Source: Rusavskia elegans
Lineage: Eukaryota > Ascomycota > Lecanoromycetes > Teloschistales > Teloschistaceae
DNA length: 64,000 bases
Assembly: GCA_011316305.1 (NCBI GenBank)
Contig: SAUG01000021.1
Span: 682,001-746,000, forward strand
Direction: 5' to 3'
The notes below the pieces were generated by a model. It was given only the letters and a program-made list of their open reading frames with translations, ran no database searches and was not told the DNA's origin. Positions 31,652 to 55,475 of the stretch are shown here, piece after piece. The position numbers and the translations under genes are program-made. How positions within the stretch are numbered: the stretch's first letter is position 1; each line of letters opens with the position of its first letter.

Positions 31652-34600
31652 CTACCGTTCCCTCCTCTTCTTGATCCTTCCCCAAATGCCCTTCCCCTCC
31701 ACCTCCTTTTCCTCTGCGCTCTCTGTCCTTGCCATCAACTCCCTCGGGACCTGCGTCGGGGGTTCCGAGTTGCGTAGGAAATCGGCTAGGTCGCTCATTC
31801 CGCGGGCGTTGTCGTCGCGGTCAGAGCGGGGGATGCCTGCGGGCTTGGCTTTACGTTGAGGGTTGGAAGCCGTGGTGGTGGTTGTAGAGGTCGTTGTTGT
31901 ACCGTTGATGTTACTGTTTAAGGCAGGGGCGGCGGCCGAAGAGGAGGGCGTGTAGGTACTCATGAGGTGGGGGGAGATATCTCGGGAATTGAGTGGTGGG
32001 AGTTGTGGTGGTTTGGCCGAAGGTACTGCTGTATTTGTGGGACGGCCGCGTGAAGGTTGCTGTGGGGACGAGGTTGGGGCTTGGTTGGCTGAGCGGATGC
32101 CTGGGGTGGCAGATGCGGCTGCTGCACGGACGATGCGTTGATTGTACATTTCGTTGGCCTTCTTGTTGATGTTCTTGCTACGTGTGGTTGGATTGGGAAT
32201 GTCGTCGAACGCGGAAGGGATGATCGGCTTGGGATCACTGAGTGGAGGCGTGCTGTTGAGAAAATCGATGAGAGATTCTTCTTGATGCTGGGGCTTGGGT
32301 GTTCTGGGGCGGCCCTCGTCTTCACTGTCGGTATCGACGGCATAGGGATCTTTGACACGCCGCTGTTTGCGGGCTGCTTGAGAAGGCTCGTCGAAGCGCG
32401 ATGGTTTCTGGGACAAGGGAGGAGAACCGCCAAGCGATCCTCTCGAGCTGTCGAGAAGGCCGGTCCTCGAATTGGTAGATCTGATGGATCTGTTGGCGAA
32501 AGCGCTGTCTTGTGTGCTGGCCACGGAGCTCCGGGTATTGTCCGAAAAGCGGTCCCGTAGATTGGTCGGGACATGCGGATTCTGGGGGACAACGGAAGCT
32601 ACAGGACTGGGCGCTTGACGTTTCTCGACGGCCTGATGGTCGACTGGTCCTTGCCTCAGGAATTCGAGTAGGTCTTCGTTATGTGTTGGGCCATATGTAG
32701 CTTCACGAGCCTGAAGTCTCGAGGTCGGTCGTTTCGCCGGGGGAGTATGTGCGACAGGCGGTGGTGATTTGGCAAGACTCGGGTTTGGTTTAGTGATCTT
32801 CCTGCCAGTAGACGCGGCGGATGTTGATCGCTGCTCAGGTGACATGGCTTTCGTTGGCCGCGTCATGTTCGCAGATGGCGCCACACCCCTGTCTCTGGTG
32901 GGATCCCTTCTAGACACTGCTTCTGGCCCAGTGGATCGAATGAAATCAGCAAAGTCTTGAGTCGATTCGGAACCCAACTGAGCATCCCGTGGCGCTCCTT
33001 GCGGGGACCTTGCTGTCGTCGGCCTTGAGTATTGGCTCGGCGTTTTTGGTGTCTCCTGGGAAGGTGCACTGGTCTGGATTGCGGCCGGTTTGGAAGTCGC
33101 GATGGGGTTTGACCGGAGTCCGTTCAATCCCTTGAGCGACACGATGGAGCGACCGGCCGTCGGACGACCCGTCTCTGCTGGCGGCGGTCCAGATGTCCGA
33201 ATGAAGTCAGCAAGATCCGCGGTTCCTGTTCGGCTGTGAGAGTATCGCGGCGAATCAAGCGACTGCACCCGTTAGTAAACACCACCCAACGCTTGACAGA
33301 GCGACTCACCTCGGTTTCCCGCACACTCTGCGGTGTCAGGGTATATTGGATCGTCTCATCACTTTTGATGAGTTGCTCGAAGCTATGCTGCGTCTCGTCA
33401 ATCTCCGGTGTCCTGACCAAAGGGGTCGCCAGAGTATTGCTGGCTTCGGATGATCTCCTGGATACCGCATACTGTCTGCTCGTATCACTTGACCCTCTGG
33501 CCCTGAGCACTTTGGATTTGCTTGCGGTCTGAGAACTACTGGAGCCCGAGGTATGGATAGGTCGCATTTCACGGCTGCTGCTCGTGGATGTTCTACCGAC
33601 GGGTGACTCCAGAACACTTCCTGGGGACGGAGACACGCGCTGGACCGATGCTCGCTCTACTCCAGTACTCACAGGCGGAAGTTGCTTCCTGATCTCTGAC
33701 AACTTCAGCGACGGTTTCGCCTGTGGGAAGGTAGGTGAAGGACTAGGTGCAGCCATCAACCTATTTCCGGGCATCTCAGCGAGAGACCGTGGCCTCGACC
33801 CATTCGGCTGTGCGGGTTGAGCGTATGATGACCCATTGAAACGATTGCCATGCGGTATCGAACCGCCGAGCGTGGCAGGCACAACATAGTCGTCACCTTC
33901 ATCATTCGATCCTGTCGCTTTACTCACAGGAATGTCTCTCACCACATCTCGGTTTTCGGAAACCTGTGGTGGTTGATTCTCGACAATCGAGGTTTCGCGG
34001 TTATCAAGGGATACATTCTCCGTCGTATGCCCTTGCATTCTCCAAGAATCAAGTTGATTCTCAACCCCCGGTGAGATACCAGGCGTTTTATCTTGGTTGC
34101 TTTTTACGGGGAACTGGTCGGTAACCTCCTGGCTTCTGTTGTCTATGTGCGAGGGAATTCCTGATTCTAGCATTGCTGGATTCATGCTGTTGTCATATGA
34201 ATCAATTGAAGCTCGTGTCAGAGAGTCTAGACCTTTGTCAAGATTCCGTGCTTCTGTATCATATCGTTCGTAATGTGGCCGAGAGTTGTTAGTCATGTTC
34301 CCCTGCTTGTCGTCCATTGCACCTTCCTCACGCGCTATTGCTCCGTCATAAATTGTCATTACGGCAGGAGCGTCAGAGTCATGTCGAGAGTTACCGGGTG
34401 GATAGGTCCGAGATTCGTCAAAGAACATGCCTCCTCTGGGACTCGAGTACAAACTTTGTTGGGAATCCAGGTACTGGCCGTATGCAACGGGTGGCAATGA
34501 GCAAGACCGATTGCGTTGCAGGAGTTCACGCCTGGGCCTCCTTGCGCGACTATCATCATACTGGTCTGCCGCCATTTGGTACGAGTCGGATGACAACAGC

Positions 34601-35772
34601 ACGCTACGTGGTCTCTCTATCATATGGCGATGAGAATTCTGCCACGGAAACTCAACGCCCTCGATCTCTCTTGAATCGTACGTTGTAGTCGGCAGAGGTA
34701 TAGCCGCAGCCTCCTGCACGGATTCTGGATCATCCAGGGCGGCAGGCCCTGCACAAGCGTCATGTAGCCGGTTATGATCTTTCGCTTCTCCAACGCTAGG
34801 CTCACGGCTTCGTGAATCGCTCTCGGGAAGTGAGCTAGTTGGCCGAAGGGAGAACTCGTGGGACGACCGTCTCTGCTTGGCCAAGCTCGGCGATCTGACT
34901 CTCTTTTTCCATGACCTCCAAAGTCGACCGAACGTGGTGTTGACTGCCAGCTTTTCTATATCGACCACTTCGACAGAAGGACGTTGAACGCCTGCGAGAT
35001 TTGGCAGTCCGTGGTTGTCCTGTCGCCGTCGGGCTTCGAAGCGTGTGTATGCGGCTTCAGCAGAGAGCAGCAGAACATGTTCGGCGATGTACTCGAGTAT
35101 CGAGGTCAGGAAGATTGCGGCGGCCGGGGAGACAACGCCCAAGTCACGAGACAAGCGATGCTGGCCCTCGGCTTCATGAGCATCGTTCTCACGCTGCAGC
35201 CACACTTTTTCGTCTTGCTCCTCCAGATCACCAAGGTGGGTATAGACCATGCACCTTAGGCGCGTCCTCCGCCAGATTTTGTTCAGGTCCCAACCAGCTC
35301 TGGATTCTAATTCTTCGTGGAAAGCGGACAGTTCGTCATTGTCTCCGTCAAAAGCCTGCAATTCTTCATCGGCACTGGCGATGGCGTCTTTGGCCAATCT
35401 GGGCTTCAAGACTTCGATGACAGCGGGTCGCAGTGCAGCAATCGCGGTGGAGCGAGAGGCGAGGAGAATGCTGTAAAGTAGCTGATCGAGGAAAGCGTTG
35501 AGCAAAAGCAAAGCGTTGGGTGCGACCAGGGTGTTGTTGGCAGCAAAACTGGTGGGCCGGTCTTGGTCGGCGTCTTCCAACATTGGCTCTCGATCGCCAG
35601 TGACAATTTGGGATGCGGAAGAGGGCGCAATATATGCAGGCTCGGGTTCGACGGCCGGAGGGCAGACGAGTGAGACAACGGACAGAGAGGACCTGTCGTT
35701 GGAAATACTCGAGCTTCTCTGAGATCTGGGCTTGGGACGAAGTGAAATCCCGGGCGAGATGAGGCTGTTCAT
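31652..35772 (-). CDS. Disordered protein with five DLADF-like motifs
   Basis: Two exons, 35772–33310 and 33262–31652, joined in phase 0 across a 47-bp intron (GTGAGT...TGCAG), give 1,357 aa. I start at MNSLISPGISLRP; an in-frame Met 35 codons upstream is possible. Residues ~80–235 are helical and ordered: NALLLLNAFLDQLLYSILLA, AIAALRPAVIEVLKPRLAKD, then VVSPAAAIFLTSILEYIAEH and LLLSAEAAYTRFEA, somewhat like a pair of histone-fold-type helical bundles (inference). Most of the rest is disordered. The C-terminal third carries a repeated short motif, TADLADFIRTSGPP and four variants, at about residues 835, 922, 1016, 1150 and 1310, ending close to a basic C-terminus (GRIKKRRER). I know similar filamentous-fungal proteins but no function; nuclear or scaffold roles are guesses. 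Confidence 0.82.
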
Positions 35773-39138: not shown

Positions 39139-39690
39139 TCATACTCCGTTGACAATGTTCGCAAACTCAACATTGCCCATGAGTATTCCTTGGCTCAAGA
39201 CATACCCGTAATATGTCACGTATTCATCCTGCCGCTCATAATCGCACAAATGAAGCTTGCCAGATCCGCTAATCCCGGCATACCTGCCGGTACCAGAACC
39301 CGGCACGATGTTGAACGTGGCTGTGAACTCTTCCTCACCCACCTTCCACACTTCGGGACCTTTCTCCCCGAAACGGACGGTGCCGCTACCCTCGATGTCA
39401 AATCTCGAAACCTGACCGCACTCGACGTTGCAGGCTGTACCGGTGAATGTGTATGGCGAGGTGTGTGCGGAGAAGACGGTGTCGATGAAGAGACTTTCCG
39501 GCCCATCTGGGGCTTTGGCATACGCGTTTTTGGGGTACAAAGTTTTGGGGTATAAGACGTAACGGCCGTAGAGACCGGGTCTACGGTGGTCGCCGTGTGA
39601 AGGTCGGGGTTGCGGTGGAGCGGTTGGATCGTATTGTCGCGATTCCTTGTGGGTGCCTTCGAAGAGGTCCCATACACCGTTGGGAGGCAT
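39139..39690 (-). CDS. Cluster paralogue A (GSG-x-Y-x-GI family)
   Basis: Intronless, 183 aa from MPPNGVWDLFEG; an in-frame Met 21 codons upstream is less likely because the intervening residues match nothing in the paralogues. Family features: N-terminal Trp (GVWDLF), SPYTFTGTA strand, FDIEGSGTVRF, and the signature FNIVPGSGTGRYAGISGSGK then LHL. The C-terminus GNVEFANIVNGV* is shorter than in the others and lacks the final G..L[LM]. The alternating pattern and Gly-rich turns suggest a small beta-barrel; the GSGTG.Y.GI.G.G signature recalls AOC-barrel/DUF3224-type proteins, which is an untested resemblance. No signal peptide or membrane segment. A TATA-like TTTTATA lies about 85 bp upstream. 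It is the outermost member of a nine-copy array. Confidence 0.75.
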   Translation of the reverse strand: MPPNGVWDLFEGTHKESRQYDPTAPPQPRPSHGDHRRPGLYGRYVLYPKTLYPKNAYAKAPDGPESLFIDTVFSAHTSPYTFTGTACNVECGQVSRFDIEGSGTVRFGEKGPEVWKVGEEEFTATFNIVPGSGTGRYAGISGSGKLHLCDYERQDEYVTYYGYVLSQGILMGNVEFANIVNGV

Positions 39691-40734
39691 CTTGATGGTC
39701 TTAAAGATTGTTGAAGATGCGGTGTTTGGCTTGGTGGCGATGTACAAGAGCAAAGAAGCAGGTATGTGGATGACCCTCTTTTATACCTGGTATGTTGTGT
39801 TTAGTGACTCGAAAAGAGCAACCTGATGCCAAACGGCTTCCATGAAAAAGGATCGAAGAGTCATGCCGAGCATGTCACCATGTCGCGGCAATATAACAGA
39901 GATTGAGATGCTTCCTTAGTAACGCCTACCTCGCTTGCTGACTGTTCGACACAGGACACCAATTAACTCAAATATCATAACAAGGCTCCAACTCTCGGCT
40001 CTCTGGAAATTTGAGGTCATGTCCATGTCCCTTCGTCTGCTAGAATTCGTGTTGCCTCAGCTCCAGCGCAGTCGTCGTGTCAACTCATAACAAACCACGG
40101 ACCAACCGCAATGAGAGGCTTATACCACCCGTCACCTCAAAGAAGGATATAGTTTTTATCGGTTAAATGGATACTGACTGGATAGGTATGGGGGACGAAA
40201 GCAAAAAAAGTCATCTCCCCGACAGGGAATCGAACACGACAAGGCCAAATAGTATCCACTTTTGGGCCCGTCAATTTTGTCTGCGGATGGTGGGAGTGTG
40301 GATTTATTACTAACCTAGACCATCAAGGACGATTCATGAGTTCACAGCTGCAAAATTCTCATTGCATGCTTCTTTGGATATCAGGTGTAGAGTCGAGGGA
40401 CTCTTGCTAGGGAAACCCATGAAGTTATAGGGCCGAGGGAATACGCTGGCAGAAGGGCATAGCCTGCTGGCTATGATACAATTTAAAGGAAGTCTGTCGG
40501 TCCACCTGGTGGATTCGGTCACCCTGTTCCCGGTTGTGACTTATGTCTGCTGCTAGCGGTAGGACTGCCTGCGGGAGGATGGAAAAGAGATGACGTGTGA
40601 AATGACAATCCTATGTGGCACAAGATCTCAAACCGAGCTCGAAATGCTGCTATGAACCACTGATTGAACAGACACATACGTACGTCAATCCAGAGAACGA
40701 ACGCACGCAGACATCAACTAAAAAGACCGGCTAT
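39691..40734. other. Spacer between paralogues A and B
   Basis: Holds the promoter of A, a tRNA-like sequence at 40215–40329 and the 3' flank of B. No protein gene seen. Confidence 0.5.
40215..40329 (-). tRNA. tRNA-like sequence, probably degenerate
   Basis: Read on the minus strand it starts TCCTTGA and ends TCGGGGA+G, which pair as a seven-base acceptor stem with two G·U pairs. An A-box-like TGGTCTAGGTTAGTAA and a T-loop-like GTTCGATTCC are in the right order and a run of seven T follows nine bases... shortly after the end, as for a Pol III terminator. ATCCAC and GTGGAT could form the anticodon stem with ~38 bases between, implying an intron. Against function: the T-stem (TCGTG/CCCTG) pairs poorly and no anticodon fits the loop rules cleanly. 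Likely a decayed tRNA gene; its original identity is unclear (the 5' end looks Asp/Glu-like). Confidence 0.35.
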
Positions 40735-41358
40735 CTACAAGAGTGATGCACCCGCATCATTGATACTTTCGAAAACAAGAGAACCACCGCCATAAGGTAC
40801 CCGTGTAAAATGAGCATAGTAACCCGCCATCTCTATTCCGTTCCAATACTCTCCAATCTCTACCTTTAGCCTTCCAGACCCGCTAATACCGGTAAATATA
40901 TCGGTACCAGACCCTTCCACGATCTGGAATCGACTGCCGAAAAGTTGGCCGCCGTCGTGCTTGTCGGTAATGGTGCCGGTTCCTTCAATTCGGAATTCTC
41001 CCACCATTCGATTACCTGATTCTAGATAGGGTTCGTACTTTACGGAGCCGTGGAGAGTGTATGGGGATGCGGGTGCCCCGGGTAGGACTAGTTCGAATAC
41101 TAAAAAATCGCGTTGGTAGGCGGGACCGCGACGAGGGTAATAGTAGGCTTGGTAGTCGGGTATGCTGTGCCAGTGATCGTCAGCTGGTCGCGGAGGAATG
41201 TCGGTAGGAGAGTCGAGCACAGGAAGTGACTGCCATTGCTGACCCCAGACGATCCATGGATTTGGTTTGGGCATTTCTGGTTCAATACTCTGGGGGTGAG
41301 TGTCTGCGTTCGACTTTGTGTCTCCTGAGTCCTGATAGTGGATGTTGATTTTTGGCAT
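40735..41358 (-). CDS. Cluster paralogue B (GSG-x-Y-x-GI family)
   Basis: Intronless, 207 aa from MPKINIHYQDS; the frame is open for 21 more codons upstream. Features in order: PKINIHYQDS, NPWIVWGQQWQSLPV (family Trp), WHSIPDYQAYY, SPYTLHGSVKYEP, FRIEGTGTITD, then FQIVEGSGTDIFTGISGSGR and LKVEI, and the family C-terminus SLVFESINDAGASLL*. It is closest to C: both share a K-I-x-I-x-Y start, W-G/Y-x-QWQS, and WHSIPDYQ. B and C are transcribed away from each other across 547 bp, so they may have arisen by an inverted duplication and may share control. Soluble; no transmembrane or signal sequence. Function unknown. Confidence 0.82.
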   Translation of the reverse strand: MPKINIHYQDSGDTKSNADTHPQSIEPEMPKPNPWIVWGQQWQSLPVLDSPTDIPPRPADDHWHSIPDYQAYYYPRRGPAYQRDFLVFELVLPGAPASPYTLHGSVKYEPYLESGNRMVGEFRIEGTGTITDKHDGGQLFGSRFQIVEGSGTDIFTGISGSGRLKVEIGEYWNGIEMAGYYAHFTRVPYGGGSLVFESINDAGASLL

Positions 41359-41905
41359 GGTGGAGATGAATGGTCCTTGGGGAGATGGTGTGAAGACAGG
41401 AAGAAGCCTTAAGGGTTGCAAGAGAAGGAAGCTAGATCGTTATATCTCTTCTGGAAGTGGTGGTGGAGGGGATATCCTGGTGAGTCGAGGCTTGTGATTG
41501 AAGCCGGTGAGTCAATATCGTACACGGCATCCATTCTCCTATTAGTAAGTTGATGCCTCACGCCACGGCTGTATCTGAAACGACGAAGATCTAGTGATGA
41601 TCATGCTTTGAGGTTATGTACTGCTGGGTTTTTCACCCTGGATTGCATCGTCGCAATTTCTTATGGCGGTTGACCCATTGAAATAGCCACCTGACTCTAA
41701 TAGGCTTCAATGAAGAAAAAAGAAGGTTCGTGCAGATCGTGAATACGTTTGGTGATCCAAGATATCCCCTGCAACACCAACCACTGTGACAGGAATAAAC
41801 ATATATACACGCAGCCCATTTCTTCCCTATCCTCTATTTCCCTTCTCTCGACCCTCGCCCAAGCCTCACACTTCTCCACTGTTCCAATATATCTAAGCAA
41901 AGAAA
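41359..41905. promoter_or_regulatory. Shared 5' region of divergent paralogues B and C
   Basis: Must contain both promoters. No coding sequence seen. A C/T-rich tract (about 41815–41900) precedes C. Confidence 0.5.
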
Positions 41906-42517
41906 ATGGTAAAGATAACAATATACTACCCCTACAACGAAAGCCGCAGTATCGAAAAGATGTCTGATCCCACACCTTGGAACATCTACGGCTTCCAGTG
42001 GCAGTCCATGCCTTTGCCCAACACTTCACCTAGCAACCCGCGACCTACTACCGGCGATATGGCCATCTGGCACTCCATCCCGGACTATCAAACCAAATTC
42101 ACCTTAACCCACGGTCCTATCGGAACGGACAGGGACCTGGAATTAAAAATGGTCTTCTCGGCACATTCATCGCCATTCACCTACCACGGGACCGCGAACT
42201 TCCGAAACGGCAAAAAAGAAGATGGTGAAACGGTGCCTGAGGGCGAAGAACCGGAATTTCGGATCGAGGGGCAAGGGACTATTACTTACGAGTCGGGCGG
42301 CAGTGAATTTTTTAATAGCCGTTTTCAGATTGTGGATGGATCGGGTACGCGATCTTTGACGGGGGTGAAGGGGTCTGGGAGGTTGTGGACGAGAGTTGGG
42401 GTACATAGGAATGAGTATGGAGATCTTGATCAGGTGGGCTTTTATATGCATGCTGGACGGGGAATTGGGGACCTTTTTTTTGAACATGTTAATGAGGTGG
42501 GTAAAGCACTTGTGTAG
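41906..42517 (+). CDS. Cluster paralogue C (GSG-x-Y-x-GI family)
   Basis: Intronless, 203 aa. Reads VKITIYYPYNES, TPWNIYGFQWQSMPL (family Trp), WHSIPDYQTKF, HSSPFTYHGTANF, an acidic insert (EDGETVPEGEEPE), FRIEGQGTITYES, then FQIVDGSGTRSLTGVKGSGR and LWTRV, ending DLFFEHVNEVGKALV*. All family blocks are present, so this copy looks intact. Within the Y.GI.G core the usual Tyr/Gly are replaced (SLTGVKGSG). It is the sister of B by sequence. A second in-frame Met (MSDPTPW) at codon 19 could be the real start, since several paralogues begin just before the Trp. Confidence 0.82.
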   Translation: MVKITIYYPYNESRSIEKMSDPTPWNIYGFQWQSMPLPNTSPSNPRPTTGDMAIWHSIPDYQTKFTLTHGPIGTDRDLELKMVFSAHSSPFTYHGTANFRNGKKEDGETVPEGEEPEFRIEGQGTITYESGGSEFFNSRFQIVDGSGTRSLTGVKGSGRLWTRVGVHRNEYGDLDQVGFYMHAGRGIGDLFFEHVNEVGKALV

Positions 42518-43100
42518 ATGGTTGCTTTTTGTTTGGTCAGAGATGTGCATGCGTGTGTTGTATTGATGGGTTATGAAGGCAATATCTAAGCTTATGTTGA
42601 AATCTGTGTGCCGCATGGCCTGGGTGCAATTTGAGAAATTCGGGTCTGTGTAGAATAACAGGGAATCTGCCTTTATTTTTTTTTTTTTTTCTCGTATTCT
42701 ACCTTTTTCTGTTTGGGAATATGTGTCTCGTGGGAATAATTTCCAAGTGTGGTGGTGCGAAGGGAAGGAGTGAGTACCTCTACTCGAAAAGGCAGAAATA
42801 AGTATTGGGGCAGTGACTGGGTGAGAGAAACAGGTGAAAGTACATATCTCTCACCGATCATCCAGCAGCGTGAAACGAACAGTCACTGTGGGTTCAACAC
42901 CACGGAGTCAAGTCACAGTGAATATGGAGTCACTCCTTCAAACATACAGCTGTCAGTTCCTCATCAGACCCACAACTTCTCCATTCTCTCCTCCAAGCTT
43001 CTCCTTCAACCCCATCCCTGTTCCTTCTTGAACTTCCCAGACCGGACAAACCTTCTCAAGTACACACCATCTCCCACCACCACCACCAACAACAACAAAT
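42518..43100. other. Spacer between paralogues C and D
   Basis: Contains an 18-base T run near 42674 and a C/A-rich 5' leader of D. Open frames here have no family motifs. Confidence 0.5.
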
Positions 43101-43631
43101 ATGACAGAACCAAACACCCCCAACCCAATCCCCCACGCAAGACCAACAATCTCGACCCTCAACCACCTCTCCGCCACCGGAACCTGGCCCCACACAACCG
43201 CCATAATCGACATCCGCACCATCTTCCCCGCCGCCGAACCCACATTTCTCGCCGACTTCGAAGCCTTCAAAGACCCCAACCAGAAACTAACATTCACATT
43301 CACCTCCTCGCCCATCGACTCGCCCTACAATTTCGAAGGCCTGCTTTATCACGAACCGCATCTCGAGCATGACGAGCACGAGATTCATCGATACGTTTTA
43401 CAAGGCTATGAACGTCCCAAGGAGGTATACGAGGGAAACATCCAGGTCTTCGAAGCGGAATTCGAGATCATGGGCTCGGATTCTGTGGGGTTGTGTTGGG
43501 GGATGGTGGGGAAGGGGAATGTGAGGATTCGGATTGAAGGCGAGGATACGGATCCGGCTTTCTTTGTCGAGGGGAGGAAAACGCTGTTTGGAGCCGGAGT
43601 GAGTGTTTTTGAGTGTACGTTGGTGGGTTGA
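43101..43631 (+). CDS. Cluster paralogue D, most divergent member
   Basis: Intronless, 176 aa. The N-terminus is Pro/Thr-rich with a single early Trp (ATGTWPHT). DSPYNFEGLLYHEP corresponds to the SPFTY strand, YVLQGYERPKEVYEG to the second strand, and FEAEFEIMGSDSVGLCWGMVG then KGNVRIRIEG to the signature, where GSG has become GSD and GI has become GM. It ends GAGVSVFECTLVG*, lacking the N..G..L tail. Membership rests on order and spacing of these blocks and on position in the array. It may be evolving faster than the rest or losing function, although the frame is intact. Confidence 0.65.
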   Translation: MTEPNTPNPIPHARPTISTLNHLSATGTWPHTTAIIDIRTIFPAAEPTFLADFEAFKDPNQKLTFTFTSSPIDSPYNFEGLLYHEPHLEHDEHEIHRYVLQGYERPKEVYEGNIQVFEAEFEIMGSDSVGLCWGMVGKGNVRIRIEGEDTDPAFFVEGRKTLFGAGVSVFECTLVG

Positions 43632-43964
43632 TATGTTGGGAATTTCTTTGATCGAAGTGTGTTTTCGAGGAGGTGGTATGTCGGGTATTTAGTTTCTTTA
43701 CCGTGTGTATCGAGGTACCGATTGTCACATGCCTCTTATTGCGATTGGGTTGAGACACGATACAACGAGTCTGGTGGGGCAGAGGGAACACGAGTTTTAG
43801 CAGGTGAAGGGATGGAATTTGGACAGTAAATGTCGAAATAAAACATGCCCTGGGTGCCCAGATTGTTCAAAGTGTCATAGTGAAATTGGGAGGTGTACAG
43901 AACCAGAATAGCGCGAAAGATTTCCAAAGCAGATGCATGCTGAGTCCCCTCCTTCCCAGAGGCC
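43632..43964. other. Convergent 3' region of D and E
   Basis: Short spacer between the ends of paralogue D (plus) and the broken paralogue E (minus); nothing else seen. Confidence 0.5.
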
Positions 43965-44448
43965 TCATTCAGTCGGTTCCATCATTTCAAGTAGTGCCTT
44001 TCCAGGCTCATTCAAACCCTCAAAAACACACGTTCCGCACGCCCCCTCCTGATAGTCTTCGGAAATCTCTAATCGAAGCCTTCCACGTCCGGTAATCTCA
44101 GCGTATCTACCTACTCCAGAGCTCTCAACGATCTCAAAGGTGCTCTTGTGGATCTCAGCGCCTCCCTCGTCCTGAAAAATACTTCCCTTGCCCCGAGAAG
44201 TACTTCCCTCGCCCCCAGAAACGCTTCCTTCGATCCGAGAAATACTTCCCTCGCCTTGAATTTTGAAATGGTTCGCCTCACCGAAGCCGCGTTGCGTCTG
44301 CCAGATTGTAGGTGAAGGGTGAAGAGTGCGATGACATGTCGATGGTGGTGAGGTAGTTGATCTTTTTGCCCTCGATCGCTGTCAATATATAGTTGTTTTC
44401 GCCTTTTTGGCAGAAGCCATAGAGGATTCAGGGGTCGTTGGAGGACAT
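43965..44448 (-). pseudogene. Cluster paralogue E, broken copy
   Basis: Recovered only by reading two frames. From the ATG at 44448 the frame reads MSSNDP then TGA (44428–44430), exactly where every other member has its invariant Trp; it continues ILYGFCQKGENNY and HSSPFTYNLAD to a second TGA at 44278–44280. The homologous frame resumes one base over as EANHFKIQGEGS and runs through FEIVESSGVGRYAEITGRGR to LRLEI and the family end GTCVFEGLNEPGKALLE. Between them lie four 21-bp tandem repeats (44172–44255), each coding a seven-residue unit of the type GEGSISR. So it carries at least one nonsense change, one frameshift and one repeat expansion. Another open frame spans most of it but is not the family frame. 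Confidence 0.75.
44172..44255. repeat. 4 x 21-bp tandem repeat in pseudogene E
   Basis: Units 44172–44192, 44193–44213, 44214–44234 and 44235–44255. In the family frame they code GEGSISR, IEGSVSG, GEGSTSR and GKGSIFQ. The other paralogues have a single such unit (for example EGTGTSS) at this place. Confidence 0.85.
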
Positions 44449-45197
44449 GTTGATGGGTTGTGCGGTTGCGTTGCGGGTTGGATATGGAAGCTGTTTCAGG
44501 TTTGACGGTCTTTTTCGTAGGAAAGGAAGTTCTTGAGTGTGATGTTTTCAAAGACAATGAAATGAGAGGAGCGGAGATACTTATAATAGAGATCTGAGGG
44601 TCAGCCATAGCAGGAAAAAGCTCTGAAAAATGTAGAGACTTGAGAACGTGGAGTCACAACATCCGTGAAACTGGACGGTGATTTGGGTTGAAGTAGCCAG
44701 CATTGTCGAGACTTCTGTGATGCTGCGGTTGATCACGTCCTCGTGAGTATCTCTCGTCTTAGGCTACTGCCGTGCTTGTAGATGAGTATCCTTGCGGTGC
44801 AAAGTCCATGGAATGAGGCAACGGTTGCCTGGTGTTTCAGGGATAAGTAGAGATGGGACTGAGATGTGGATCCAATCGAAGGGGCCGAGGAATTTCAGTC
44901 TCGTGTTGGACATATCGGTTCGTCACGGTACTCCACGTAATATTCCTAACTTGGGTGAAGACTTGCTGGTATTTGAGTCAAAAGTTCGCTGTGGAGATAC
45001 TATTCGTATGACTGTGAGCGAAAGCATTGGAATGGAATCGAAGGAATTAGTACCGAGTCTCCCTCCTCCTAAGTTGTTTATCTTGCAGCAAAGGATAAGA
45101 GCAATCATACCCGCAGATACACCGTCGAAAAAACCTCAACATACCAAACACCACTTCAGCAAGCATCGGCAAAACTAAGACCAATACGAACGCTACT
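44449..45197. promoter_or_regulatory. Spacer between divergent E and F
   Basis: Holds the 5' flanks of pseudogene E and of paralogue F. One open frame (44792–45178) shows no family motif and I do not call it. Confidence 0.45.
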
Positions 45198-45617
45198 ATG
45201 GCAACCCACGGACCATGGGAAGTCTCCGTGCTCTACGAAAATATACCCCGGTCCTCCGACGAGGAAGAGCTGACGCAATGGACTTTTGTTATCAAACCCT
45301 GTGGCTTCCGTGTCTACTTCAAGGCACTTTCACCTAGTTCCTCTTTCACATACACGGGTTATGGATTCTCAACTACTAATAGCCGGTACCGCGGTGACGG
45401 GTTCCAGATTCATGGCAGTGGAAGCGTCTCGAAGGACGAAAAGACGGGTGTTGAAATTTTCGAAGGCACGTTTGAGATCGTCGAAGGGAGTGGGGACAAG
45501 AGTTTTGAAGGGGTCACCGGGGGCGGAAAGCTAAAGCTTGAGTGTAATCGAGAGGGATTTGGGACAGGAACATGTGTTTTTGAAGGAATGAATGGGGCTG
45601 GAGCGTTCCTGATGTAA
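45198..45617 (+). CDS. Cluster paralogue F, short form
   Basis: Intronless, 139 aa, the shortest member. MATHGPWEVSVLYENIP brings the family Trp close to the start. SSFTYTGYGF is the SPFTY strand, FQIHGSGSVSKDE the second, FEGTFEIVEGSGDKSFEGVT then GGGKLKLEC the signature, and GTGTCVFEGMNGAGAFLM* the C-terminal block. Because it holds every conserved block and little else, it probably shows the minimal domain of the family. The C-terminal GTCVFEG wording is shared with pseudogene E, with which it is divergently arranged, suggesting a common recent ancestor. Confidence 0.8.
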   Translation: MATHGPWEVSVLYENIPRSSDEEELTQWTFVIKPCGFRVYFKALSPSSSFTYTGYGFSTTNSRYRGDGFQIHGSGSVSKDEKTGVEIFEGTFEIVEGSGDKSFEGVTGGGKLKLECNREGFGTGTCVFEGMNGAGAFLM

Positions 45618-46140
45618 ATGGTCTGAATCTTGTATTGATAGACAGTATCGTGTTTCTTAGCCTTAGTCATACAACTGAGGCCAAGACAGCCTCCGAGTGT
45701 TAGCTTTCGGGCTGTGCGTGGTTTTTCGAATCGGTCCTCGCTGGAAGTCTGAGCTGATGCATGAGTCTTCAATGTGTCATTGTGTGGGGACCATCAAGAC
45801 TGTTGACTATTATATGCACTGGTGAGGTCTCCGATTTGGCTGGCAACTTAGGTATCCGATGCCCAATCTACGAGTCGAATGTAAATTGTCTCGTTCGTCA
45901 TTATACCACCTTCTGGGTTTGTATTGCATCTGGGTTTGTATTGGGTAAAGGTGAGACACGGTATGGGTTTCTGCGAGTCATGACTCCGAATAATCTTCAT
46001 CTTTTATAATTGGTGCATGTCTGTGACACCACGTAAGCAAGCCTTATAAGTGCCAGCCTCCAAGTCGTTACTTTGCTTTCACAGACCTTCATTAAATTGA
46101 TTTAACCTGTTTATTACAGCATCGACGTACTACGACCAGG
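45618..46140. other. Spacer F–G with a dispersed-element copy
   Basis: Contains the element copy at 45811–45880. No gene seen. Confidence 0.5.
45811..45880. repeat. Dispersed element, intergenic copy near paralogue F
   Basis: Plus strand has TATATGCACTGGTGAGGTCT, then TTGGCTGGCAACTTAGGTAT and CCGATGCCCA, collinear with the BTB-intron copy at 28121–28188 but with substitutions in the core. Confidence 0.65.
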
Positions 46141-46587
46141 ATGATCCGAACAAGAAAAATACTCTACCAACCAAACCCGGTCAAACCATGGACCGTTAGC
46201 GGTCATAATGGTGATGGGGAAGACGTAAGCTACACAGTAATCCTTCACGACCACGACCTTCCATCCGCAGCAACCCCTTCTCCGCAACTACAAATCAACG
46301 TTACGTGGAACAACTCGGGCTTGGGCCTCACCGGCGAGTGTATCAGACTCCAGCCTTATGCCAAGTTATTCAAAATCCGGGGCAATTTTCTGATAGATTG
46401 GAAAGGGCCGTCTTCTGTTTTGAACATGTCGTTTGAGATTGTCATGGGGAGCGGCAGGGAAGATTATGAGGGGATTCGTGGCGGAGGGAAAATTGCTGTC
46501 CATCTCTTTCCAGGATCGAAAGTTTGCGCTGGGCAGGGGACGTGTGCTTTCGAAAACATGAATCGGGTCGGCTTGTCGTTGGAATAG
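46141..46587 (+). CDS. Cluster paralogue G (GSG-x-Y-x-GI family)
   Basis: Intronless, 148 aa. VKPWTVSGHNGDGED carries the family Trp; the middle strand is diverged (LGLTGECIRL in place of SPFTY); FKIRGNFLIDW is the second strand; MSFEIVMGSGREDYEGIRGG then GKIAVHL is the signature; and GQGTCAFENMNRVGLSLE* is the family C-terminus with one extra Glu. All elements needed for the fold appear present. Same strand as F and separated from it by 523 bp. Function unknown. Confidence 0.78.
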   Translation: MIRTRKILYQPNPVKPWTVSGHNGDGEDVSYTVILHDHDLPSAATPSPQLQINVTWNNSGLGLTGECIRLQPYAKLFKIRGNFLIDWKGPSSVLNMSFEIVMGSGREDYEGIRGGGKIAVHLFPGSKVCAGQGTCAFENMNRVGLSLE

Positions 46588-47653
46588 CTGGCGGGAATCT
46601 AGAATTTAGGTGTATGCATGTGTTTGAGAGGAGGCCTATGTCGAGAGCAAGTCAAGCGTACCCTTCGCCAGAAACTCTCAATGTCTAGTAGTGCTCCCTG
46701 CTATTGAGCAACAGATAGCCCAGCGTGACAGATCAGAAACGAATGATGGAGTTATATCAAGTACGAGAATAAGAAGCAATATGTCAACCTTGGAAAAGCT
46801 GCAGATGAAACGCGTCTCTCACCTGAGATCCGAAGAGCTGCAGGTTCTTAATTATCGTAATCTAGCAAGTGGAGTTCTAGAGTCCTGCTGAAGGGCATGA
46901 CTTCGTTGAATACACGTAGCTGGGAAGAGAGTCAGTGATGAAAATGCAAGGCAGCGTTCTTGCCAGTCAAGCTCGTATTCGTGTTTTGGTGATGCAGCCC
47001 TAGCCGTAAGCGTGTACTGTTGTTGTAAGGGTGTAGAAGGCTTCTTGTACATATAATACGTGTAATCTGCGTAAAAGGCGGAAATAATTTTCTTGGATAG
47101 GACTCTAGAAACGGTGTTATCTGGATACTCTAGTCTGTTAATTTTAAATGATTTGGACCATGCGTTGTTGTATAAGTATTTTTTAAAAATGGGTGGTGAC
47201 TGTTTAGGGGGGGGCCCCCAAGGCACGCTTGCAATTGACTTTCCGAAAACTCTGTTGTACACCTTGGCAGGTCACAGAGGCAGCAGTAGGCAGGTTCATT
47301 ATACTCCACGTAGAAGCACGGCTGCTCCTGGAAGAATGCCCCATACGTCCTCGCTGGAAGTCGATGAAGTCGATTAATCCGAAACATCCAGCTTTTCTCA
47401 ATAGACCGGTGCAGCAGTACGACGGAAAACATGGACTCCGCACAACTTGTCTAGCCGGTTGTGAATCATCGTTGACCAAGAGAGCAAACCAGTGTCTTGC
47501 AAAATTAACAACCGTTCTGGCACGGAAGGATACCAATTCGTTTTAGAAGACGAAAAGCGATGTCACCGGGCATTTAGGAAAATTGTTCCATTGGAATCGG
47601 ATTTCTTCCGAACAAGCAAGTGCATACATGAATATACAGGACCAGTTATCAGC
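46588..47653. other. Convergent 3' region of G and H
   Basis: No gene is supported. The part around 46900–47200 is relatively A+T-rich with stop codons in all frames, and a G9C5 run lies near 47209. The last ~20 bases before 47654 belong to the H/I duplicated unit. Confidence 0.5.
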
Positions 47654-48420
47654 CTACATGAGAGAAGCTCCGACGCTGTTCATGTTGTCGAAGAAACAGG
47701 AACCAGTCCCTTTCGCAGCCTGGATAGGTAAGGTGACCGTAAGTCTTCCATCTCCTACAATGCCCTCGTACCCTTGCCTACCGAACCCTTCAACGATCCG
47801 GAAGACACTCTTGAAAGTGGCCGTGCCTTCTTCATCTGTAGAGCTAGTGCCGGTACCTTCAATGCGGAAGTTATCCGTCAGATTTCGAAGTCGATCTGCG
47901 TGTTCCAAATCGTCGAGATCATCGGGTCTTGTACAAACAATGGCATCATAGGTGAAAGGCGATGTCTTGCTAGAGGATTCGATGCCGATCATAAGGATTT
48001 TTTCTTGGGCACCAGCAAATCTGGAAAGAAAGTAGCAGCCACGGAAATCGGGATCTGGGTGGTTGTCGTGCTTCGCATAGAATATCTCCCAAGGGGCGGA
48101 CGCTGTGGTGACAACGGGTTCTGCAATAGACTGTGGGCTTTGCTCTGGTTGGGACATCGTGAGCCGATGGTGTTGTACTCATGTCACGAGTGCTGAGAGT
48201 TCAATTGGTGATTGAAGGTGGTCGATAGACGATGAGTTAGATTGCAGGTTTTGTTACATGCCAGTGGTGTCAAGAAGGGTAGTGGAAGACCGTTCAGCGA
48301 CCTTTTATACCACTCCGGCACGCTAGTCATTACGCTGTACGAAGGGAACGGAGTCATTTTATACTCGGAGTCACCGAGAGGAAAGACTGCAAATATTGAG
48401 GCGTATATGAAGAACGGTGT
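47638..48420. repeat. Tandem duplication unit containing paralogue H
   Basis: Matches 48602–49372 on both flanks of the coding region: AGGACCAGTTATCAGCCTAC at 47638 against AGGACCAACCATCAGCCTAC at 48602 downstream of the genes, and an upstream block with AAGACTGCAAATATTGAGGC near 48383 against a matching block near 49335. Spacing is about 950–965 bp. Confidence 0.7.
47654..48157 (-). CDS. Cluster paralogue H (GSG-x-Y-x-GI family)
   Basis: Intronless, 167 aa. After a Ser/Pro/Ala-rich start comes SAPWEIFYAKHDNHP (family Trp), TSPFTYDAIV, FRIEGTGTSSTDEEGTATF, then FRIVEGFGRQGYEGIVGDGR and LTVTL, and GTGSCFFDNMNSVGASLM*. The signature has GFG where most have GSG. It lies in the same orientation as I and both coding regions sit in homologous flanking DNA, so the pair arose by tandem duplication of a unit of about 960 bp. 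Protein divergence between H and I is nonetheless large while flanks remain alignable, which hints at faster change in the coding part. A TATA-like TTTTATA lies about 145 bp upstream. Confidence 0.82.
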   Translation of the reverse strand: MSQPEQSPQSIAEPVVTTASAPWEIFYAKHDNHPDPDFRGCYFLSRFAGAQEKILMIGIESSSKTSPFTYDAIVCTRPDDLDDLEHADRLRNLTDNFRIEGTGTSSTDEEGTATFKSVFRIVEGFGRQGYEGIVGDGRLTVTLPIQAAKGTGSCFFDNMNSVGASLM

Positions 48421-48617
48421 ATATGCTAGTCTTTTGAACAGACCCAATATAAAAGTAGTGATATGGTGAAGGAGCTGCACTCCACATTGTGGTTTTATGT
48501 AAGCTAACAATATGGTGGGGAAAAATCGCCTCCGGCAGTTTCTGGCATTATAGGAGAGCAGGATATATATTCCCGAAAAGCAAGCGCATGCATACATAAT
48601 CAGGACCAACCATCAGC
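48158..48617. promoter_or_regulatory. 5' region of paralogue H
   Basis: Spacer between H and I. It includes the upstream block (about 48360–48420) that is also found upstream of I at the same distance, a candidate for a shared promoter element. Confidence 0.5.
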
Positions 48618-49372
48618 CTACATAAGTGAATCTCCCACGTTGTTAATGTTTCTGAACACACAGTTGCCGTAGACCTTTGGGCTTCGAACTCGAGTGGTTA
48701 CGATGAGCTTCCCTCCACCACTGATTCCACTGTACAACCCCTTCCCAGACCCAGCGATGATCTTGAATGTACTTTCACGTTCCGTATTGTCACTTTCGTC
48801 GACGATGATGCCTTCGCCCTCGATCTTAAACTGAGAGGCCTCTTCTGACTGAGGCCTTGGTTCGACCAGCCATGGTTGTACGGTGCCGTTGTAGGTGAAA
48901 GGCGAACCCTGTCCAGAATATCTGAGCTCCACAGTTAGCCCTTTGAAGACTGGGCCATCACAAAGCACGTATTCGGCACCGATATTGGGATGCGGATTTT
49001 TGGATTTCCAGTGGTGTCCAGCAACGTCCCAATATCCTTTGGAGCTCTTCGGAGGAGGGATCTGCATTCTCAGGCCCATTATCTGTGAACGGTGTTGCAC
49101 TGATGCAGCGAGTGCAGAAGCCGAGACTGTGATGGATGTTGGCAGGAAAAGGAATGGATAAAACAGCAGATTGCGGAATTTGGTAGTTATTCTTGGTGTC
49201 GAAGAAGACGGTTGAAGACATTCAATCTATAATTTTCGAGCGAAAGCAGTACGGTAGTCGCCATTGTAAAGAGTGAAATGACACATCAAAGAAGATACGT
49301 GTGGAAGCATCTGATACTCCATTCCACTAGCGAAAAGACTCTGCGATATATCGAGGCAAAGATGAAGGATGG
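48602..49372. repeat. Tandem duplication unit containing paralogue I
   Basis: Partner of 47638–48420; see that entry for the matching flank sequences. The homologous block upstream of I lies near 49335. Confidence 0.7.
48618..49100 (-). CDS. Cluster paralogue I (GSG-x-Y-x-GI family)
   Basis: Intronless, 160 aa; MGLRMQIPPP at codon 8 is an alternative start. GYWDVAGHHWKSKNP carries the family Trp and the second W.S also seen in B and C. Then GSPFTYNGTVQP, FKIEGEGIIVDES, FKIIAGSGKGLYSGISGGGK, LIVTT and GNCVFRNINNVGDSLM*. All blocks are canonical, so this copy is probably functional. It is the last member of the array before a 1.8-kb gene-free stretch leading to glutamine synthetase. Confidence 0.82.
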   Translation of the reverse strand: MQHRSQIMGLRMQIPPPKSSKGYWDVAGHHWKSKNPHPNIGAEYVLCDGPVFKGLTVELRYSGQGSPFTYNGTVQPWLVEPRPQSEEASQFKIEGEGIIVDESDNTERESTFKIIAGSGKGLYSGISGGGKLIVTTRVRSPKVYGNCVFRNINNVGDSLM

Positions 49373-50912: not shown

Positions 50913-52497
50913 ATGGTGAGCAAGGTTGGACCTAACGCAATAGGAATCGTGGAAGCTGACTGTTGTGTCAAGGCCGCAACTTCTTCGACTGTCTCCAATA
51001 CGGAGAATGTGAGCTTCCACACCCCGAACTCCATGAGAACCCACGGCTGACGGTCGCTACCAGCTCATGAAGTACATGAAGCTCGATCAGAGGGGTTCTG
51101 TCCTAGCCGAATACATCTGGATCGATGGTTCCAACGGTGTCAGAACAAAAACCAAGGTTCGTACAATGCGCAATCCCGTCAATTGCCAGGAAGGCAATTC
51201 CGTTTGTGCTGCACAAACCTTCATCCGGCTTTGCCTCCTCTGACTGCGCCTGCTTCTGGCAAGCCCTTGTCGGGAACCTGCGAAAACCACCCTTGAACAT
51301 GCAGCCTCCCATCTCCCTCGCTTAGCGATTCGCTCTCTTAGCGTCGCAAGAAGGGAACCTCGGGTTGCAACAGCAAGCTAATTATATCCTTCGCTTCTTC
51401 ACAGACCCTATCAAAACCCGTCAAGGACTACAAGGAACTACCTGAATGGAACTTCGATGGTTCGTCCACCGGCCAAGCCTCCAGCGAGAACTCCGATGTC
51501 TACATTCGCCCCTGCGCCATCTTCCCCGATCCTTTCCGTGGTGGCGACAACATCCTGGTTATGACCGAAACCTGGGATCCGGATGGAAGCCCCAACAAAT
51601 TCAATTATCGCCATGAATGTGAGCGGCTGATGGAAGCCCATGCCAAACATGAGCCCTGGTTTGGTCTGGAGCAAGAATACACTATACTCGACGCAGATGG
51701 ATGGCCATACGGCTGGCCCAAGGGCGGATACCCAGCTCCTCAGGGACCATACTACTGCGGTGTCGGCACGGGCAAGGTCTTCTGTCGAGACATTGTCGAG
51801 GCCCATTACAAGGCATGCCTGTACGCTGGCCTGCAGATCTCTGGTATCAACGCCGAGGTGATGCCATCTCAGTGGGAATTCCAGATCGGTCCTTGCGAGG
51901 GCATCGCACGTGAGCTGTCCTGTCAGTACACTGTGAGATCTATAATACTGATGATTCTGCACAGTGGGAGATCATCTCTGGGTGGCTCGCTACCTCCTCT
52001 ACCGCGTTGCCGAAGAATTCGGTGCCAAGATCACTATAGAGCCCAAACCCATCAAAGGAGATTGGAACGGAACCGGTCTGCACACCAATGTCTCAACCGC
52101 CGAGATGCGGAAAGAGAAGGGCATGAAGGCGATTGAAGAAGCATGCAAGAAGTTAGGGGAGCGCCACGAGGAGCACATTCTCGTCTACGGAGAAGGCAAT
52201 GCGGAGCGAATGACGGGCGAGCACGAAACCGCCTCGATTGACAAGTTCAGCTACGGGGTTGCCGACCGTGGTGCCAGTATTCGCATACCTCGTCAATGTG
52301 CCCAGGAGGGCAAGGGATACCTGGAAGACCGAAGACCGGCGAGTAACGCGTGTCCGTATCGTATTACCGGTATCATCATGGAGACGGTAAGCACAACCTA
52401 CCTCTTCGCTTGCAGACGTCAAGCAGCATTTTCTGACACGTTTCGACAGATCTTTGGCGGTATGGAGGGCTTGGATCTCAGTAAAGCTGAGAAATAA
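50913..52497 (+). CDS. Glutamine synthetase
   Basis: Six exons: 50913–50915, 50973–51008, 51064–51156, 51405–51909, 51965–52386 and 52450–52497, giving 368 aa. The first coding exon is just the ATG, followed directly by GTGAGC; the second codes [12 protein letters not shown]. Family motifs: [104 protein letters not shown] and IRIPR. These form the ATP, glutamate and metal sites of eukaryotic type II GS, which makes glutamine from glutamate and ammonia in the cytosol. The residue across intron 4 is Leu (GIALGDHLW) where most relatives have Met or Ser-Met. The third intron is long (248 bp). Confidence 0.97.
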
Positions 52498-53159: not shown

Positions 53160-55475
53160 ATGGCGACCCCGAATACCTCTCACTACAAGCCCGCACCAAC
53201 CCCTCGTCCACCAAATTCAGCATCGGTCATGACTCCCGCCTCCTTCTCGGCTTCCTCCCCGGCCGCACCCCCTTCGACTCATTCCACGGGTGCCGGCCAC
53301 CGCTCCCACCAATCTCCAGCGCACTTCTCCTCCTCATCTTCTTCCACCACAAGAGCAGGCAAATCACCTTTCAACCATCTACAGCAATCTCATTCACTGG
53401 CTTCCGCAGCGGGCGGGCAACCTATGTCACGCTCCGGGACCAATACCAGCTCGCCTCCGACAATACCAAACATGGGCGCTTTCGTGGGTTTGAATGGGAT
53501 GCTGATGAATGCTATTGAGGGCGGGAACTTCAAGACTGGATTGACGCCTGCTGGCGGAATCGGCACGCCTGGGATGGATGGGGTCTCCCCGTTGCCGTCT
53601 CAGCCTGGGGCTGGAGAGGGGGTGGGAACGAGTGTGAATGGGTCTTTGGTGAGACAGCAAGTAAGGGATCAGGAAGAAGAGAGAAAGATCAGGTTGGAAA
53701 ATATCGTGCGGTTGATTGGGCAGAGGTGGGGATATGTTTCCAGGGAAGGGGTGGAGAGGTGTGCGAGGAGGGTGGGGCTGGAATGCTTGTGGGAGGACGA
53801 ATTGCCAGGGACGGACAGCAGGACGCTGAGTATTGCGGGCAATTCGGTCTTGGTGGACGTCACGTTTGTCGGTACGGTTGATGAGGTAGGGAGTGTGACT
53901 TTAGCATTCCCAGGGAGGGAGGACGGGGGATGGGGCAAGAGTGCTAAGGAAGGTGCGGAAGTGTTGCAGAAAGATTTGAAGGGCGAATATGAGAATGCCT
54001 CGGCCTACGTTGGTCTGGAGCCTTTTGTTGGGAACTTGCAACGACTGGGTAGCTTGGACCGACTGGGAACGGGGGAGGTGAACTGCTTCGATGCCGTCGA
54101 TGGCATTGGAGGAGCGCTCAGAAAGATATGGGAGATGGAGACGACGAAGCGGAAAGAAGGGAAGGATGATGAGGTACAAGAAGGCATCGAAATTGATGTG
54201 ATGTGCAGGGACAGCGGAAAGCCTACCATGCACGCTGGAGGTCGTTTGGGACTGGCGCTGCAGTATTGGATGGACAGAAGACACCTGACAAGTCGGAAAC
54301 GCAAAGCCGACGAGATGGACGTTGATGGCGATGGGGAAAGGACGGTGTCTAAAAAACCATCGACGTGGTCAGCAACCATCGAATGTCAATCTTCTTCCGT
54401 AGACATGTATCCCTCCATTCGCGTGTCCAGCAACTGGGTAGGCGAGGCACCGGGAAAACCGGCAGCAGATCAAGAAGACCTTTTCTCAAGCTCAAACAAT
54501 GAAGTCTCGAACATCAACTGGCAAGACCCGCCTCCAACTTTCGCCAACATCGAACCTCCCGCTTCTGCCGCAATGGATCTCGGCGCTGATACAATACTCC
54601 ACCAAAAGCCGCCGGACGTTCGCTTCATTGCCCGCTTCCATCCTCCTGTCTTAATGCCGTTGCAAACAGCCATCAATATCTTCAACTCGGTTGGGATTCA
54701 GGAAGCCATACAACCGACAACGTACGACTCGCTACTTTTGCCCAATAAGGATGGAACACCGTCTATTTCTTCGACGGAAAGGATGATAGAGAGGGATATC
54801 TACAGCCCAAGCAATGACGATGGCTTTAAGTGGACCAGTAGGCGACACAGGTACACACTCTTCACGGACTCTCAAGCCTACGCTCGGAACATCGAGGAGA
54901 TCCCTTTTGCGCACCCAAAGCAGATCGTAGCGCTCCTTCCAGTGCTGAGGCAGTGGGCTTTCGTGTCAAGTGTCCTACGCCGCTGCTTTCAACGGCCCAA
55001 GCGAGGGGATGAGAAAGAGGAAATACCTAACGGAAACCCTACCTCGACGCCTGATAGTGATTCGGACTCGGATTCGGACTCAGACTTGAATTCCGACTAC
55101 GACATCCATACATTCCCTACCCACACTATAACCCACAACTTCAACACCCTCCTCCACCCCCAGCCTTCTTACTCGACATCAAAACCACCATTGGCAACAC
55201 CAATTGACATCTCCCTCTCTCTTTCTGGACCCTCCCCACGTATCGACATCATCTTCCCCTACAAAGGCGATCTAGCCAACATCTCTTTCAGCGTAGAAGC
55301 GAACGCAGAGATCGGTGATGTGAATATCCAACTCGGCCCCGGTTCAACGAATCATAATGAGAAGGTGGAAGGAGAGGAGTTTGAAGCGAAGTTGAAGAAG
55401 AGAAAGCAGGGGGTCAAGAGGGTTTTAGAGGTAAGTGAAGATATGGGGGTGTTGGTTCAGTGGATTGGGGGTTGA
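53160..55475 (+). CDS. Mediator complex subunit 1 (Med1)
   Basis: A single exon of 771 aa. The N-terminal ~150 residues are Ser/Thr/Pro-rich and disordered. The Med1 domain starts near residue 165: RKIRLENIVRLIGQRWGYVS, REGVERCARRVGLECLWED, LSIAGNSVLVDVTFV, VGSVTLAFPG, then LGSLDRLGTGEVNCFDAVDG. The C-terminus RVLEVSEDMGVLVQWIGG is the usual end of fungal Med1. The family acts in the middle module of Mediator, linking transcription factors to RNA polymerase II in the nucleus. An acidic Asp-Ser repeat (five DS units) lies near residue 640. The identity rests on the N- and C-terminal blocks; the middle is poorly conserved in all fungi. Confidence 0.85.
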   Translation: MATPNTSHYKPAPTPRPPNSASVMTPASFSASSPAAPPSTHSTGAGHRSHQSPAHFSSSSSSTTRAGKSPFNHLQQSHSLASAAGGQPMSRSGTNTSSPPTIPNMGAFVGLNGMLMNAIEGGNFKTGLTPAGGIGTPGMDGVSPLPSQPGAGEGVGTSVNGSLVRQQVRDQEEERKIRLENIVRLIGQRWGYVSREGVERCARRVGLECLWEDELPGTDSRTLSIAGNSVLVDVTFVGTVDEVGSVTLAFPGREDGGWGKSAKEGAEVLQKDLKGEYENASAYVGLEPFVGNLQRLGSLDRLGTGEVNCFDAVDGIGGALRKIWEMETTKRKEGKDDEVQEGIEIDVMCRDSGKPTMHAGGRLGLALQYWMDRRHLTSRKRKADEMDVDGDGERTVSKKPSTWSATIECQSSSVDMYPSIRVSSNWVGEAPGKPAADQEDLFSSSNNEVSNINWQDPPPTFANIEPPASAAMDLGADTILHQKPPDVRFIARFHPPVLMPLQTAINIFNSVGIQEAIQPTTYDSLLLPNKDGTPSISSTERMIERDIYSPSNDDGFKWTSRRHRYTLFTDSQAYARNIEEIPFAHPKQIVALLPVLRQWAFVSSVLRRCFQRPKRGDEKEEIPNGNPTSTPDSDSDSDSDSDLNSDYDIHTFPTHTITHNFNTLLHPQPSYSTSKPPLATPIDISLSLSGPSPRIDIIFPYKGDLANISFSVEANAEIGDVNIQLGPGSTNHNEKVEGEEFEAKLKKRKQGVKRVLEVSEDMGVLVQWIGG

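What the first reader, a model, noticed from the sequence alone, without database searches (positions are those of the whole stretch)
39139..49100. Nine-copy cluster of an unassigned small beta-rich protein family
Seen: nine homologous intronless genes (A–I) on both strands within 10 kb, with little else between them. Shared blocks are an early Trp (WDLF, WIVW, WNIY, WEVS, WTVS, WEIF, WDVA), a SPFTY-like strand, F.I.G.G, an FxIVxGSGxxxYxGIxGxGxL signature and, in most, a G.C.FE..N..G..L end. Lengths run from 139 to 207 aa and divergence is high, yet eight frames are intact. Established: GSGTG.Y.GI.G.G-type strands occur in AOC-barrel/DUF3224-like proteins. Inference: a local birth-and-death family under diversifying pressure, as for self/non-self, ligand-binding or secondary-metabolite-related proteins. 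None has a signal peptide, so the action is probably intracellular.
Basis: partly seen in the sequence, partly recalled or inferred. Interest (0 to 1): 0.85.

Follow-up and report, generated by a model that had tools for sequence, protein, structure and literature searches.

The report
Old cluster of lichen-fungus barrel proteins
A lichen-forming fungus carries, in a single 10-kb stretch, eight working-looking genes and one broken copy for small barrel-shaped proteins, which resemble a group of unknown function and, in predicted shape, proteins that hold and fold small molecules; most copies look old and separate rather than a fast-changing set.

The parts
39139..39690 (-). copy A, 183 aa, AOC-barrel/DUF3224-like
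   Evidence: ORF; DUF3224 23.5 bits against cut-off 25; 95% to P0003
40735..41358 (-). copy B, 207 aa; model pLDDT 81
41906..42517 (+). copy C, 203 aa; no orthologue found
   Evidence: 44% to B; DUF3224 17.8 bits
43101..43631 (+). copy D, 176 aa, most divergent
   Evidence: left-out profile E 3.3e-7; orthologues P0006, P0014
43968..44381 (-). copy E, disrupted; this is the open C-terminal part. An SPFTY-like piece seen by eye lies in another frame just upstream
   Evidence: left-out profile E 4.4e-16; frames listed
45198..45617 (+). copy F, 139 aa
   Evidence: left-out profile E 6.2e-20
46141..46587 (+). copy G, 148 aa
   Evidence: left-out profile E 1e-12; 92% to P0002
47654..48157 (-). copy H, 167 aa; unusually divergent from its nearest relatives
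   Evidence: 60% and 56% to P0015 and P0016
48618..49079 (-). copy I, 153 aa; model pLDDT 67, eight strands

Best explanation
A single, old gene cluster of Teloschistaceae lichen fungi that encodes eight soluble, probably cytosolic AOC-type barrels related to DUF3224, each with a hydrophobic lumen. Most likely each copy holds its own small hydrophobic molecule in that lumen, and the likelier use is to steer its ring closure or isomerisation by shape, as dirigent proteins and AbyU-type cyclases do, not by a catalytic group common to the family. Shown: homology, the single locus (for five queries), orthologue groups, predicted fold of two copies, no shared charged residue, His or Tyr. Inferred: lumen ligand, templating, cytosolic place. 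Not known: the ligand.
Confidence: 0.45

Rival explanations
1. Pure binding proteins: the barrels store, shield or carry pigments or lipids and convert nothing.
For: No charged residue, His or Tyr is conserved at 75% or more; no ketoacyl synthase near. Avidin-type and nitrobindin-type binders also match the I model.
Against: Dirigents and cyclases make up much of the top of both lists, though a shared fold shows no function.
Confidence: 0.3
2. Local birth-and-death family under diversifying selection (self/non-self or arms race).
For: E is broken; C has no found orthologue; H is 56-60% identical to relatives in sources where B or G give 88-92%.
Against: A, D, F, G, H and I belong to strongly supported groups that hold other species or sources; nearest relatives of A, B, D, F, G and I are 87-95% identical; gene order is partly kept by locus tags. 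dN/dS not testable here.
Confidence: 0.1
3. Symbiosis proteins released without a signal peptide, acting on the alga or on microbes.
For: The 14 named close relatives all come from lichen fungi of one family.
Against: No signal-peptide-like stretch; nothing else points outside the cell.
Confidence: 0.08

Closest known systems
DUF3224 (PF11528; structures 2q03 and 2ooj from Shewanella)
   Same: the VxGSGTGxxxGIxGxG strand pair; best second-look structural match of both models is 2q03; cut-off reached by four relatives
   Different: profile likeness limited to 31-34 columns; window copies all below the cut-off; longer proteins than the five bacterial members aligned; multi-gene fungal cluster
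Dirigent proteins and allene oxide cyclases of plants
   Different: not found by the sequence searches of solved structures; no known substrate
Diels-Alderase-type cyclases AbyU, PyrI4, PloI4, Cyc15
   Different: not found by the sequence searches of solved structures; no polyketide synthase near
Pyocyanin demethylase PodA (5k21)
   Different: not found by the sequence searches of solved structures; PodA's catalytic residues were not compared

Membership tests
DUF3224 (PF11528) | score at or above Pfam's gathering cut-off (25 bits) | tested here: not met
   window copies: 0 of 8 reach it; best A 23.5, B 21.9; D and H no match at E 1. Of 17 relatives scanned, P0001 26.5, P0018 25, P0019 25 and P0023 27 reach it
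DUF3224 (PF11528) | profile-level homology | tested here: inconclusive
   hhalign against five bacterial DUF3224 proteins: probability 90 and 94%, over 34 and 31 columns only
DUF3224 (PF11528) | same fold as 2q03 / 2ooj | tested here: met
AOC-barrel fold class | barrel matching AOC, dirigent and AbyU structures | tested here: met
AOC / dirigent / AbyU enzymes | catalysed reaction on a known substrate | not testable with these tools
   no ligand or assay data
AOC / dirigent / AbyU enzymes | conserved catalytic residues | not tested
   no coordinates at hand for a residue-by-residue comparison; only the family's own conserved columns were listed
Fungal biosynthetic gene cluster | core synthase beside the genes | tested here: inconclusive
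   nearest ketoacyl synthase hit on contig C113 about 154 kb away; 29 distinct flanking frames scanned gave no core synthase. Terpene synthases and NRPS were not searched for, and a Sulfotransfer_4 frame lies about 12 kb away

The most novel reading that the evidence does not exclude
A fixed set of AOC-barrel templating proteins of Teloschistaceae lichen fungi that act in trans, from a locus far from any polyketide synthase, to decide the ring closure or handedness of several lichen metabolites: a fungal counterpart of plant dirigent proteins.
Probability: 0.15. Interest if true: 0.75.

Novelty: new variant of a known kind. Interest (0 to 1): 0.42.

Why it matters
Pfam lists DUF3224 as of unknown function, and no paper in the held library names it. 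A lichen family that keeps separate copies in one place, at least four of them (A, B, F, G) shared with Calogaya, gives a defined set to test: if any copy binds or converts a lichen metabolite, it would give this fold a role in fungi and point to a class of proteins that cluster-based mining may miss, because the genes do not sit beside a polyketide synthase.

Tried and rejected
Rejected: chance likeness (leave-one-out against 261 other window frames and 4,000 shuffles). In one search the best 'decoy' was one of 262 frames, which proved to be copy E; one search repeats the test without it.

Rejected on present evidence: a polyketide cluster. Gave nothing: the viral structure library (no match at E 0.001 or better); sequence searches of solved structures with the family profiles (chance-level hits); NCBIfam for the 8 copies and P0001; plasmid and phage records with copy B; one scan of prokaryote genomes with copy A (53 pattern matches, none confirmed; reaches close relatives only). 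The family search with PF11528 in the own genome gave 0, but its controls also gave 0, so it shows nothing.

Not settled: dN/dS, copy number between strains, expression, presence in other lichen orders or other fungi. Of 25 close relatives, 14 have a named source, all Teloschistaceae genera; 11 have none, and the search only reaches relatives that share short words, so restriction to this family is not proved. Literature: 'DUF3224' in 0 papers; 'allene oxide cyclase-like' with 'fungi' in 0; some searches were read as listings only; passages of PMC9907504, PMC11268479 and PMC6830212 were read (the last, on IdmH, proved to concern another fold and is not used).

The biosynthetic-cluster row was lowered to inconclusive.

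Full report
What is there. One search lists eight intact single frames (A-D, F-I; 139-207 aa) between 39139 and 49079, on both strands. In each, the named frame has the best codon score of the three forward frames against six long window ORFs (8 of 8). Between D and F lies a ninth copy, E, whose C-terminal part is open (43968-44381 -); by eye an SPFTY-like piece lies in another frame just upstream. That points to a disrupted copy; an unusual intron is not excluded. A profile trained on the other copies and their relatives recovers each left-out copy: A 1e-18, B 4e-29, C 4e-40, D 3e-7, E 4e-16, F 6e-20, G 1e-12, H 3e-28, I 4e-28; the best of 4,261 decoys reaches E 0.023. So it is one family, with D as the weakest member. 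Pairwise identities among the eight are 23-44%.

Where it is. The genome held has 44.16 Mb in 217 contigs. Searches with A, C, D, G and I find matches in this cluster only, save one chance-level match at E 0.3; B, F and H were not used as queries. The search goes exon by exon and its counts are lower bounds; D, for one, is found by no copy but itself. Domains named in the surroundings are mostly housekeeping: TRP channel, RRM, Med1, sulfotransferase; Spt6, FHA, DEAD helicase, glutamine synthetase, IF2B/IF5-type, SH3; TRP channel, NDUFA12, BTB, a sub-cut-off CH domain, TAF8. These are 29 distinct chosen frames, of which several gave no match, and not every frame. The nearest ketoacyl synthase match on the contig is at 566382-567017, about 154 kb from copy A.

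Whose it is. Three protein searches give 25 close relatives (P0001-P0025). Fourteen have a named source, all of the genera Calogaya, Rusavskia, Xanthocarpia, Squamulea and Xanthoria. Rusavskia and Xanthocarpia are Teloschistaceae by the taxonomy; the other three I place there by recall, and Xanthoria is among the assemblies of a Teloschistales paper (PMC9907504, passages). Eleven have no named source. Copy A is 95% identical to a Rusavskia elegans protein and I 94% to one of Xanthoria sp. 1, so the window comes from a close relative of these lichen fungi.

Age of the copies. In a tree of 32 rows, the groups of A, D, F, G, H and I are each starred; B's group has 90/88; C stands alone on a long branch and P0020 is unplaced. 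Deeper forks between groups are weak, and the joining of F with G may be a long-branch effect. A's group holds Rusavskia, Calogaya, Xanthocarpia and Squamulea; B, F and G include Calogaya; D includes Rusavskia; the named members of H and I are Xanthoria only. Locus tags show kept order: Calogaya 9221 has A (002793), B (002795) and a fused F+G model (002796) on one contig length; Calogaya 9226 has A and B two tags apart, and F and G adjacent; Rusavskia has A and D two tags apart. The duplications that gave A, B, F and G therefore predate the split from Calogaya. Against a purely stable picture: E is broken, C has no found orthologue, and H is 60% identical to P0015 of Xanthoria sp. 2 (where B gives 88%) and 56% to P0016 (where G, listed with the same longest contig length, gives 92%), with the ends of H better kept than its middle. 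H may be a fast locus or a hidden paralogue. Divergence from Calogaya (A 71-74, B 45-53, F 56, G 59%) may also be high, but I have no housekeeping yardstick.

Sequence link. Pfam DUF3224 scores: A 23.5, B 21.9, C 17.8, G 15.9, I 14.1, F 14.0; D and H none, against a cut-off of 25. Of 17 relatives scanned (7, 10), four reach it (P0001, P0018, P0019, P0023; two of them at exactly 25 as printed). hhalign with five bacterial members gives 90 and 94% over 34 and 31 columns. Of the 35 weak hits (E 0.09-9.6), eight carry PF11528.

Mechanism. Columns at least 75% identical in 26 fungal rows are Trp, Gly, Phe, Ile, Val and Ser, besides the start Met; none is charged, His or Tyr. Among the eight copies, Trp 35 and Ser 98 (B numbering) are shared by all, Thr 101 and Asn 200 by six, Glu 125 and Glu 197 by five. 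Strands largely alternate hydrophobic and polar positions. This fits a soluble barrel with a hydrophobic inside and no obvious common catalytic group, though Ser 98 is not excluded. In AbyU the lumen is the active site, and cyclisation is promoted by constriction of the substrate (PMC11268479, passages). By analogy I propose one small hydrophobic ligand per copy, with templating likelier than mere carriage. Ligand, reaction and place in the cell are inference. Teloschistales anthraquinone clusters are described as PKS, EthD, metallo-beta-lactamase thioesterase and ABC transporter (PMC9907504, passages); the passages I saw name no gene like these.

Verdict. A real cluster for which I found no description, ordinary in fold and unusual in arrangement.

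Noticed in passing
47654-48157: Copy H is only 56-60% identical to its nearest relatives in two sources where copies B or G are 88-92% identical; ends are kept, the middle is not. Fast locus or hidden paralogue.
   Followed up: partly
51342-52494: Pieces of a glutamine synthetase gene next to the cluster (the N-terminal domain below its cut-off), followed by Med1 at 53160-55475.
   Followed up: no
5872-9459 and 33124-35772: Long open frames of 1195 and 882 aa without a Pfam match at E 0.001.
   Followed up: no
P0001 (Calogaya cf. arnoldii): A deposited 301-aa protein looks like a fused gene model of copies F and G, which are neighbours here.
   Followed up: partly
P0026, P0027, P0030, P0032, P0033, P0036: Weak hits without a named organism, with a VVAGSGTGxYxGIxGxF-like motif; by eye P0026, P0027 and P0030 begin like bacterial lipoproteins; possibly another branch of the barrel.
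   Followed up: no
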